Positions 44,794 through 46,089 of a stretch of 64,000 nucleotides of DNA are shown here, in pieces (positions within the stretch are counted from its first letter, which is position 1; each line of letters opens with the position of its first letter). A program made the translations under genes and the position numbers. Below the pieces are notes generated by a model. It searched no databases and had not been told where the DNA came from. It was given only the letters and a program-made list of their open reading frames with translations. The DNA is from an uncultured Candidatus Poseidoniales archaeon (lineage in GTDB: Archaea; Thermoplasmatota; Poseidoniia; Poseidoniales; Poseidoniaceae). The DNA is taken from NCBI GenBank assembly GCA_902563095.1, contig CACEWA010000001.1:88540-152539 (forward strand), written 5' to 3'.

Positions 44794-46089
44794 TTAGTTT
44801 AGAATATATGAGAACAAGATTGGAGCTACGATTGTAGCATCTGATTCTATGATGTGCATTGGTGTGCCCGGTGCCAATTTACCCCAGGTTATTTTCTCAC
44901 TAGGTGGCGCCCCAGAATAGCCGCCATAGGATGTTGTAGATTCGGAGATTTGAGCGAACCAACCCCACAGTGGTGCATTTTCTTGCATATCTTGTCGTAG
45001 CATCGGTACAACACATATTGGGAAGTCACCAGCGATGCCTCCACCAATTTGTAAGAAGCCAATCGGATGTTCCGCATTCATGTACCAATCAGCCAAATGC
45101 ATCATGTAATCTACTCCTGTCTTTACTGCAGATTTGTCTACATCACCTTTGATACAATGTGCTGCAAAGATATTGCCAAGGGTGGAATCCTCCCAACCAG
45201 GTACGTAAACAGGGATGCCTGCATTCTTTGCTGCAATTAACCATGAGTCCGTTCTTGGAATCTCTGCTTCCAAGTCATCCAGTATAGCCATCAAATGTTC
45301 ATGAGGGAAAGCAGGACCATTCTGCCATTGAGCGAGTATCTTGTCTTCTATGTGACGGATTGCTTGTTCCTCGGGGATACAAGTATCAGTCACTCGATTA
45401 AACCCTTTAGAATGCAATTCTTCTTCATCTTCTTCACTAAGATTACGCCAGTTTGGAATCCTTCGATAATGTGAATGAGCGACTAAATTGAATACGTCTT
45501 CTTCCAAATTTGCTCCTGTGCAAGTTATGGCATGAATTTTTCCAGACCGAATCATAGGTGCAAGAGAGCGCCCAATTTCTGCAGTACTCATAGCACCGGC
45601 CAAAGTTACCATCAACCTGCCCCCTTCATTCAAAAATTTGTCAAGAGATTTAGCACAATCACTTAGCGCTCCTGCGTTGAAATGATGGAAATGGCGTTCA
45701 ACAAACCCTCTTACTCCACCGTTTACCGGTTCTGTTAGGAATCTCTCAACGCGCTTACGTCGATTGATTTTCATATTTGGATAACTTGATTTCAACTCAG
45801 TTTCTATTACTTCGATTATTCTAGCTGGGTCGGTTCCCCCACAAGAGAACGCATCTACTGCTAGTAAGCCTGTTTCTGAATAACAATGCGCGCTAACATG
45901 GCTTTCATCCAATAGTACCACCGAAGCAAAACCAAGTGGAGATACGCTTCCATCAAAATCTTCGTTGTGTGAGTGGACACGGCGCGCTCCAGAAGCATCG
46001 ACCGCCTTCTCCATCAATGATAGCATCCAAGTTCCACTAACTCCAACCGCACCAGTGCAATCGAGCATTATGTGAGATCCATGTGCCAT
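44794..46089 (-). CDS. Fused S-adenosylmethionine decarboxylase (SpeD) - deoxyhypusine synthase-like protein
   Basis: aa 1-112: DESHVSAHCYSETGLLAVDAFSCGG with S63/H68/C83. aa 115-431: DHS-like, TTSYGGYSGAPPSEKITWGKL and SDATIVAPILFSY. Single uninterrupted ORF; SD CTCACCTC (GAGGTGAG on -) with 3-nt spacer. Confidence 0.9.
   Translation of the reverse strand: MAHGSHIMLDCTGAVGVSGTWMLSLMEKAVDASGARRVHSHNEDFDGSVSPLGFASVVLLDESHVSAHCYSETGLLAVDAFSCGGTDPARIIEVIETELKSSYPNMKINRRKRVERFLTEPVNGGVRGFVERHFHHFNAGALSDCAKSLDKFLNEGGRLMVTLAGAMSTAEIGRSLAPMIRSGKIHAITCTGANLEEDVFNLVAHSHYRRIPNWRNLSEEDEEELHSKGFNRVTDTCIPEEQAIRHIEDKILAQWQNGPAFPHEHLMAILDDLEAEIPRTDSWLIAAKNAGIPVYVPGWEDSTLGNIFAAHCIKGDVDKSAVKTGVDYMMHLADWYMNAEHPIGFLQIGGGIAGDFPICVVPMLRQDMQENAPLWGWFAQISESTTSYGGYSGAPPSEKITWGKLAPGTPMHIIESDATIVAPILFSYILN

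What the first reader, a model, noticed from the sequence alone, without database searches (positions are those of the whole stretch)
44794..46089. Single-gene fusion of AdoMet decarboxylase with a deoxyhypusine-synthase-like domain
Seen: one unbroken ORF. The first ~112 aa carry the class-1b SpeD core DESHVSAHCYSETGLLAVDAFSCGG; by direct count the residues fall at Ser63, His68 and Cys83, the same spacing as the pyruvoyl Ser, processing His and proton-donor Cys known for Thermotoga/Methanocaldococcus SpeD. The rest is DHS-like, with catalytic-type Trp402-Gly-Lys404 (EKITWGK). Inference: dcAdoMet formation and an aminobutyl-transferring enzyme are physically coupled. SpeD is usually associated with aminopropyltransferases, so pairing with a DHS-type enzyme implies an unusual polyamine or protein-modification step.
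Basis: partly seen in the sequence, partly recalled or inferred. Interest (0 to 1): 0.88.

Follow-up and report, generated by a model that had tools for sequence, protein, structure and literature searches.

The report
Fused arginine-decarboxylase/homospermidine-synthase-like archaeal enzyme
In some marine Poseidoniales archaea, two neighbouring polyamine genes, one for a self-cleaving enzyme that probably decarboxylates arginine (not S-adenosylmethionine) and one for a probable homospermidine synthase, have merged into a single protein by losing the stop codon between them.

Summary
The ORF is real: 44794-46089, minus strand, 431 aa, with Pfam AdoMet_dc (aa 22-111) and deoxyhypusine synthase (aa 137-428), and catalytic residues intact. 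The fusion is not an assembly error: 9 of 9 sampled genomes of the genus and 15 genomes in 5 genera carry it. Elsewhere in the order speD and speY are usually adjacent separate genes, often in frame and split by one stop codon. Unfused Poseidoniales SpeD homologs were already assayed as L-arginine decarboxylases (SpeDA) without AdoMetDC function (PMC10407285). The AdoMetDC-diagnostic proline is Ser71 here, no spermidine synthase occurs in 40 Poseidoniales genomes, and speB (agmatinase) lies 4 nt upstream. The genome has a separate canonical deoxyhypusine synthase and an IF5A gene, so this DHS-like domain is unlikely to be the hypusination enzyme. Bacterial relatives at about 60% identity sit in speY-speA-aguB-aguA and aguA-speY-speA clusters, implying putrescine as substrate. 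Best reading: a bifunctional SpeDA-SpeY enzyme for steps 1 and 3 of arginine, agmatine, (SpeB) putrescine, homospermidine. Both activities of the fused protein remain untested. The fusion is a new variant of a known gene cluster; I found no report of it in the open-access papers searched.

The parts
44794..46089 (-). speDA::speY fusion gene, 431 aa
   Evidence: conserved as one frame in 15 genomes of 5 Poseidoniales genera
45736..46089 (-). N-terminal class-1b SpeD-fold domain (aa 1-118), predicted pyruvoyl arginine decarboxylase (SpeDA)
   Evidence: PF02675; Pro-to-Ser71; assayed unfused Poseidoniales homologs
45901..45903 (-). Ser63 codon, predicted self-cleavage site and pyruvoyl source; His68 and Cys83 follow downstream
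   Evidence: Matches T. maritima S63/H68/C83; invariant in 24 fusions
45709..45756 (-). Junction (about aa 112-127) where unfused relatives have the speD stop and the speY start
   Evidence: Unfused G064: RVDRFLHEGE*MSIRAF; window: RVERFLTEPVNGGVRGF; pN/pS 0.24; no conserved internal start codon
44797..45717 (-). C-terminal deoxyhypusine-synthase-like (SpeY-type) domain (aa 125-431)
   Evidence: PF01916; best PDB fold matches of the predicted model are human DHS; 62-65% identity to bacterial SpeY-type proteins
44878..44880 (-). Lys404 codon, equivalent of the DHS imine-forming Lys329
46094..46984 (-). speB, agmatinase-type ureohydrolase (296 aa); its stop lies 4 nt before the fusion's ATG
   Evidence: TIGR01230 177.3 bits, cut-off 174.3; the only PF00491 gene found in this assembly and in each matching genome; junction sequence

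Best explanation
A bifunctional polyamine enzyme. The SpeD-fold domain cleaves itself before Ser63 to make a pyruvoyl group and decarboxylates L-arginine to agmatine (SpeDA activity). SpeB, encoded just upstream, hydrolyses agmatine to putrescine. The DHS-like domain, using NAD and an imine on Lys404, transfers an aminobutyl group from one putrescine to another, giving homospermidine (SpeY activity). One chain thus carries the first and third steps of a three-step arginine-to-homospermidine route that needs neither AdoMet nor PLP. The fusion arose from adjacent co-directional genes by loss of the stop codon between them. After cleavage the product should be a 62-residue beta chain and an alpha chain of about 41 kDa that carries the SpeY domain. 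Shown: fusion, conservation, intact catalytic residues, operon, gene complement. Inferred: both activities of this protein, the order of steps, and any benefit of fusion.
For: Unfused Poseidoniales and MGII SpeD homologs clustered with speB and speY are active on L-arginine only and do not replace speD (PMC10407285). Residue 71 is Ser instead of the AdoMetDC Pro; no fused or unfused homolog collected has Pro there. PF02675 matches 39/40 genomes, single copy in all but one; SpeE 0/40 with controls ringing in 11/14; PvlArgDC 1/40. One ureohydrolase per matching genome, next to the fusion here. Separate canonical DHS (NF002294 371 bits, cut-off 350) and IF5A in the same genome. The same DHS-like subfamily sits in a speY-speA-aguB-aguA cluster (L071, 61% identity) and in aguA-speY-speA (L091, 58%), genomes in which no agmatinase was found; there putrescine is the natural substrate. 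Only a stop codon separates the genes in many relatives. AlphaFold model mean pLDDT 87.5 with human DHS as best PDB match.
Against: No assay of any fused protein exists in the papers found. The DHS-like domain scores only 118.7 bits against the curated homospermidine-synthesis model, cut-off 450, so it is not inside a characterised equivalog family, and its active site differs from known types (Asn306, Tyr391, Asp355). The fused steps are not consecutive in this order of reactions, which weakens a channelling argument. Published marine SpeDA enzymes are slow (kcat/Km 64-180 per M per s). The window's assembly is only 63% complete, so absences rest on relatives.
Confidence: 0.72

Rival explanations
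1. The DHS-like domain couples two agmatines, delivered directly by the fused decarboxylase, to bis-guanidino-homospermidine (caldomycin); SpeB then removes urea twice to give homospermidine. The fused steps would be consecutive.
For: Such an enzyme exists: Thermus CdmS, a DHS homolog followed by a ureohydrolase (PMC10981699). Fusion of the agmatine maker with an agmatine user is logical. The two acidic residues proposed to bind the second agmatine in CdmS (Glu136, Asp143) align with invariant Glu240 and Glu248.
Against: The CdmS-specific Phe204 and Leu286 are Asn306 and Tyr391 here, whereas a protein above the NCBIfam caldomycin-synthase cut-off has Phe and Leu. Only 82 bits to that model, cut-off 500. 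Relatives of the same subfamily sit with aguA and aguB in genomes with no agmatinase found, where the caldomycin route would have no obvious ureohydrolase.
Confidence: 0.15
2. One reading: the N-terminal domain decarboxylates AdoMet and dcAdoMet formation is coupled to a DHS-type aminobutyl transferase.
For: PF02675 match and conserved Ser63, His68, Cys83; TIGR03330 63.8 bits, just under its cut-off of 75.65.
Against: Assayed homologs are arginine-specific; diagnostic Pro absent; no SpeE in 40 genomes; operon with agmatinase; DHS chemistry does not use dcAdoMet.
Confidence: 0.04
3. The DHS-like domain is the enzyme that modifies aIF5A, with the fused decarboxylase supplying agmatine and SpeB acting on the modified protein, as proposed for Haloferax.
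For: Haloferax model of agmatine-dependent IF5A modification with an essential agmatinase-like gene (PMC5178350); IF5A present in this genome.
Against: A canonical DHS above its curated cut-off is encoded elsewhere in the same genome, and 145 of 146 order genomes have a DHS-family gene, most of them two. Key DHS residues Asp243, His288 and Asp316 are replaced. The subfamily is widespread in bacteria, which in general lack IF5A (general knowledge).
Confidence: 0.05
4. The two domains are made as separate proteins by internal initiation, so the fused frame has little functional meaning.
For: Some database gene calls start internally (P0068, 326 aa); an internal ATG exists at residue 106.
Against: That ATG is absent in 3 of 9 genus members, and two of them have no ATG, GTG or TTG between residues 101 and 136. 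The junction is under purifying selection. Unfused relatives use a dedicated stop and start that the fused genes have lost.
Confidence: 0.04

Closest known systems
speDA-speB-speY gene clusters of MGII/Poseidoniales (Li et al. 2023, PMC10407285)
   Same: Same order of archaea, same three gene families in one cluster; the SpeDA proteins there were assayed as L-arginine decarboxylases
   Different: Described there as separate clustered genes with no mention of a SpeDA-SpeY fusion; here speDA and speY are one frame
SpeD-SpeDC two-pyruvoyl fusions (D. phosphitoxidans, Omnitrophota; PMC10407285)
   Same: Self-cleaving SpeD-fold domain in a bifunctional polyamine fusion, assayed
   Different: Partner is a second SpeD-fold ornithine decarboxylase, not a DHS-like domain
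Bacterial AdoMetDC-aminopropyltransferase fusions (PMC12803844)
   Same: SpeD-fold domain fused to a polyamine-forming transferase
   Different: Bona fide AdoMetDC feeding an aminopropyltransferase, consecutive steps
Thermus caldomycin synthase CdmS (PMC10981699)
   Same: DHS homolog acting in an agmatine, ureohydrolase, homospermidine pathway; catalytic Lys kept
   Different: Standalone; Phe204/Leu286 signature absent here; far below its NCBIfam cut-off
Canonical archaeal/human deoxyhypusine synthase
   Same: Fold and imine-forming Lys
   Different: About 18-21% identity; Asp243, His288 and Asp316 replaced; a separate true DHS exists in this genome

Membership tests
SpeDA (AdoMetDC-derived arginine decarboxylase) | SpeD-fold with self-processing Ser, His and catalytic Cys | tested here: met
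   Ser63, His68, Cys83; invariant in 24 fusions
SpeDA (AdoMetDC-derived arginine decarboxylase) | Loss of the Pro conserved in all bona fide AdoMetDCs | tested here: met
   Ser71; no Pro in any fused or unfused homolog collected
SpeDA (AdoMetDC-derived arginine decarboxylase) | Genome lacks other ADC and SpeE, has SpeB or AguA/AguB | tested here: met
   (SpeE 0/40, PvlArgDC 1/40, SpeB adjacent); PLP-type SpeA/SpeC not searched; own genome incomplete
SpeDA (AdoMetDC-derived arginine decarboxylase) | Activity on L-arginine, none on AdoMet | not testable with these tools
   Shown for unfused Poseidoniales homologs in PMC10407285; not for the fusion
AdoMet decarboxylase (SpeD) | Conserved Pro and a partner aminopropyltransferase in the genome | tested here: not met
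Deoxyhypusine synthase | Score above a curated DHS equivalog model | tested here: not met
   At most 100.8 bits against cut-offs of 304-434; the genome's other DHS-family gene passes
Deoxyhypusine synthase | Substrate-site Asp243 and Asp316 (human numbering) | tested here: not met
   Asn306 and Tyr391
SpeY homospermidine synthase | DHS homolog with catalytic Lys, clustered with putrescine-forming genes | tested here: met
   Lys404; speB upstream; subfamily members with aguA/aguB
SpeY homospermidine synthase | Score above the curated homospermidine-synthesis model NF001980 | tested here: not met
   118.7 bits, cut-off 450: called SpeY-type, a separate subfamily, not a member of that model
SpeY homospermidine synthase | Makes homospermidine from putrescine | not testable with these tools
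   Needs assay
Caldomycin synthase (CdmS) | Phe204/Leu286 signature and score above NF002699 | tested here: not met
   Asn306/Tyr391; 82.1 bits, cut-off 500

The most novel reading that the evidence does not exclude
The DHS-like domain takes agmatine straight from the attached arginine decarboxylase and couples it (or transfers it) before any urea is removed, so the fusion channels consecutive steps of a guanidino-polyamine route in archaea, with SpeB acting last.
Probability: 0.15. Interest if true: 0.62.

Novelty: new variant of a known kind. Interest (0 to 1): 0.45.

Why it matters
It replaces a puzzling reading (dcAdoMet feeding a DHS) with a coherent AdoMet-free and PLP-free route to homospermidine in abundant surface-ocean archaea. 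It gives a clear case of gene fusion by stop-codon loss, with the pre-fusion state still present in relatives. Because the fused steps are not consecutive in the standard pathway, it also makes a real question testable: does this DHS-like subfamily use putrescine or agmatine, and does homospermidine serve as aminobutyl donor for IF5A in archaea that lack spermidine synthase? SpeD-SpeY and SpeD-methyltransferase-SpeY fusions in probable eukaryotes suggest the pairing is favoured beyond Poseidoniales.

Tried and rejected
PF01287 as a test for IF5A gave 0/40, but the Haloferax control was negative too, so it was discarded for TIGR00037, which found IF5A in 34/40 genomes. The phage collection had no match to the DHS-like domain. 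Shaw 2010 and the 2011 polyamine-enzyme-fusion paper are not held, so prior mention of this fusion there cannot be excluded. Origin of the fusion: a SpeY-only tree needs several label changes, with starred branches forcing at least two. A two-domain tree does not reject one Poseidoniales clade (AU p 0.213), so one or two origins inside Poseidoniales remain open. I considered and rejected assembly error, chance ORF, degenerate domains and internal initiation. I did not locate the exact sequences DAC51064 and AIF02979, so their identity to the window's domain was not measured directly; full-length unfused Poseidoniales SpeD proteins are about 51-60% identical.

Full report
Observation. The ORF at 44794-46089 lies on the minus strand and encodes 431 aa without a stop. 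Pfam gives AdoMet_dc at aa 22-111 and deoxyhypusine synthase at aa 137-428, both well above cut-off. Ser63, His68, Cys83, Trp402 and Lys404 are invariant in an alignment of 24 fusion proteins. The predicted model is confident (mean pLDDT 87.5), and its best PDB matches are human deoxyhypusine synthase.

Is the fusion real? Of 146 Poseidoniales genomes searched with the full protein, 15 show one uninterrupted frame over both domains: all 9 sampled members of the window's genus and 6 genomes from four other genera of the same family. About 34 others show the two genes in the same frame with one or two stops between them, and most of the rest have speY with speD as a separate match. In the loci inspected, unfused neighbours have a junction mostly from an overlap of a few bases to a gap of about 12 nt. 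The junction sequences line up residue for residue: unfused RVDRFLHEGE*MSIRAF against fused RVERFLTEPVNGGVRGF. In the genus, pN/pS at the junction (0.24) is about as low as in the domains (0.21 and 0.16), and no internal start codon is conserved. So this is a translated fusion born by stop-codon loss.

What does the N-terminal domain do? Li et al. 2023 (PMC10407285) searched for SpeD homologs in genomes without spermidine synthase. They assayed two from marine group II/Poseidoniales that are clustered with speB and speY; both decarboxylated L-arginine only and did not restore spermidine in an E. coli speD deletion strain. They report that bona fide AdoMetDCs keep a proline that SpeDA proteins lack. 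In T. maritima and A. aeolicus AdoMetDC this is the Pro of His-Thr-Trp-Pro; here it is Ser71, and none of the fused or unfused homologs collected has Pro there. Across 40 order genomes, PF02675 is present in 39 and single-copy in all but one, PF01564 (spermidine synthase) is absent, and PvlArgDC occurs once. The window's own assembly is only 63% complete, so these absences rest on relatives, 25 of which are at least 90% complete. PLP-type SpeA and SpeC were not searched. The SpeD domain is therefore most likely the cell's arginine decarboxylase.

What does the C-terminal domain do? The same genome encodes a canonical deoxyhypusine synthase about 73 kb away on the same contig (NF002294 371 bits against a cut-off of 350) and an IF5A, so hypusination is covered. 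The fused domain belongs to a separate DHS-like subfamily, common in Bacteroidota and other bacteria. Where human DHS has Asp243, His288 and Asp316 it has Asn306, Asp355 and Tyr391, and it also lacks the Phe/Leu pair of caldomycin synthase (PMC10981699). It passes no curated NCBIfam equivalog model. The best evidence on substrate is context. A 61% identical relative in a Rhodothermales genome lies in a run of four genes, speY-speA-aguB-aguA, and a 58% identical one lies between aguA and speA; no agmatinase was found in either genome. AguA and AguB turn agmatine into putrescine, so putrescine is the likely substrate and homospermidine the likely product.

Pathway. In the window, speB (TIGR01230 177.3 bits, cut-off 174.3) ends 4 nt before the fusion starts. 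It was the only ureohydrolase gene found in this assembly, and matching relatives have one each. The reading is arginine to agmatine (SpeDA domain), agmatine to putrescine (SpeB), and putrescine to homospermidine (SpeY-type domain, NAD). In the standard order the fused steps are the first and the third. Direct use of agmatine by the DHS-like domain would make them consecutive. It is not excluded, because two acidic positions proposed to hold the second agmatine in caldomycin synthase are also acidic here, but residue signature and context speak against it.

Evolution. A SpeY-domain tree and a two-domain tree leave open whether the fusion arose once or twice in Poseidoniales. Outside the archaea, probable eukaryotic sequences (one from a EukProt transcriptome) carry SpeD-SpeY fusions, and longer ones carry a PF01234 methyltransferase between the two domains. 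These branch apart from the Poseidoniales proteins, so the pairing may have fused more than once.

Novelty and verdict. The components, the cluster and the arginine decarboxylase activity of unfused homologs are published. I found no mention of a SpeDA-SpeY fusion in the open-access papers searched, though key subscription papers are not held. I rate it a new variant of a known kind, with moderate interest.

Noticed in passing
P0242-P0246 and P0248; P0243 is from a EukProt transcriptome: SpeD, NNMT/PNMT/TEMT-type methyltransferase (PF01234) and DHS-like domains in one protein of about 680-820 aa, several with long, possibly organelle-targeting N-termini; probably eukaryotic. A possible N-methylated homospermidine synthase; function unknown.
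   Followed up: partly
L143-L196, e.g. L144, L146, L153, L157: SpeY-type genes lie on 54 contigs classed as viral in IMG/VR, some up to 465 kb; L146, L150, L152, L153 and L154 also carry a SpeD homolog about 1-3 kb upstream. A 2023 study found no SpeY in phages by BLASTP (PMC9992855), and the phage collection here gave no match.
   Followed up: partly
L061:2905-3948 (Trichormus variabilis plasmid A): A plasmid-borne deoxyhypusine-synthase annotation scores above the caldomycin-synthase model (591.8 bits, cut-off 500) and carries all CdmS signature residues, so it is probably a caldomycin synthase.
   Followed up: partly
Other Poseidoniales, e.g. L023, L024, L037: speD stop codon directly followed by the speY ATG in the same frame: a one-mutation-from-fusion state, or a place where readthrough could make the fusion.
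   Followed up: partly
L092 (CALDQY010000162.1, titled Rhodobiaceae bacterium): Carries a Poseidoniales-type speB-speDA-speY cluster; the MAG contig is probably mis-binned or mislabelled.
   Followed up: no
window 40252-41757 (+): Class-III aminotransferase (PF00202), 501 aa with about 80 extra residues before the domain, on the opposite strand near the polyamine genes; a link to polyamine metabolism is untested.
   Followed up: no
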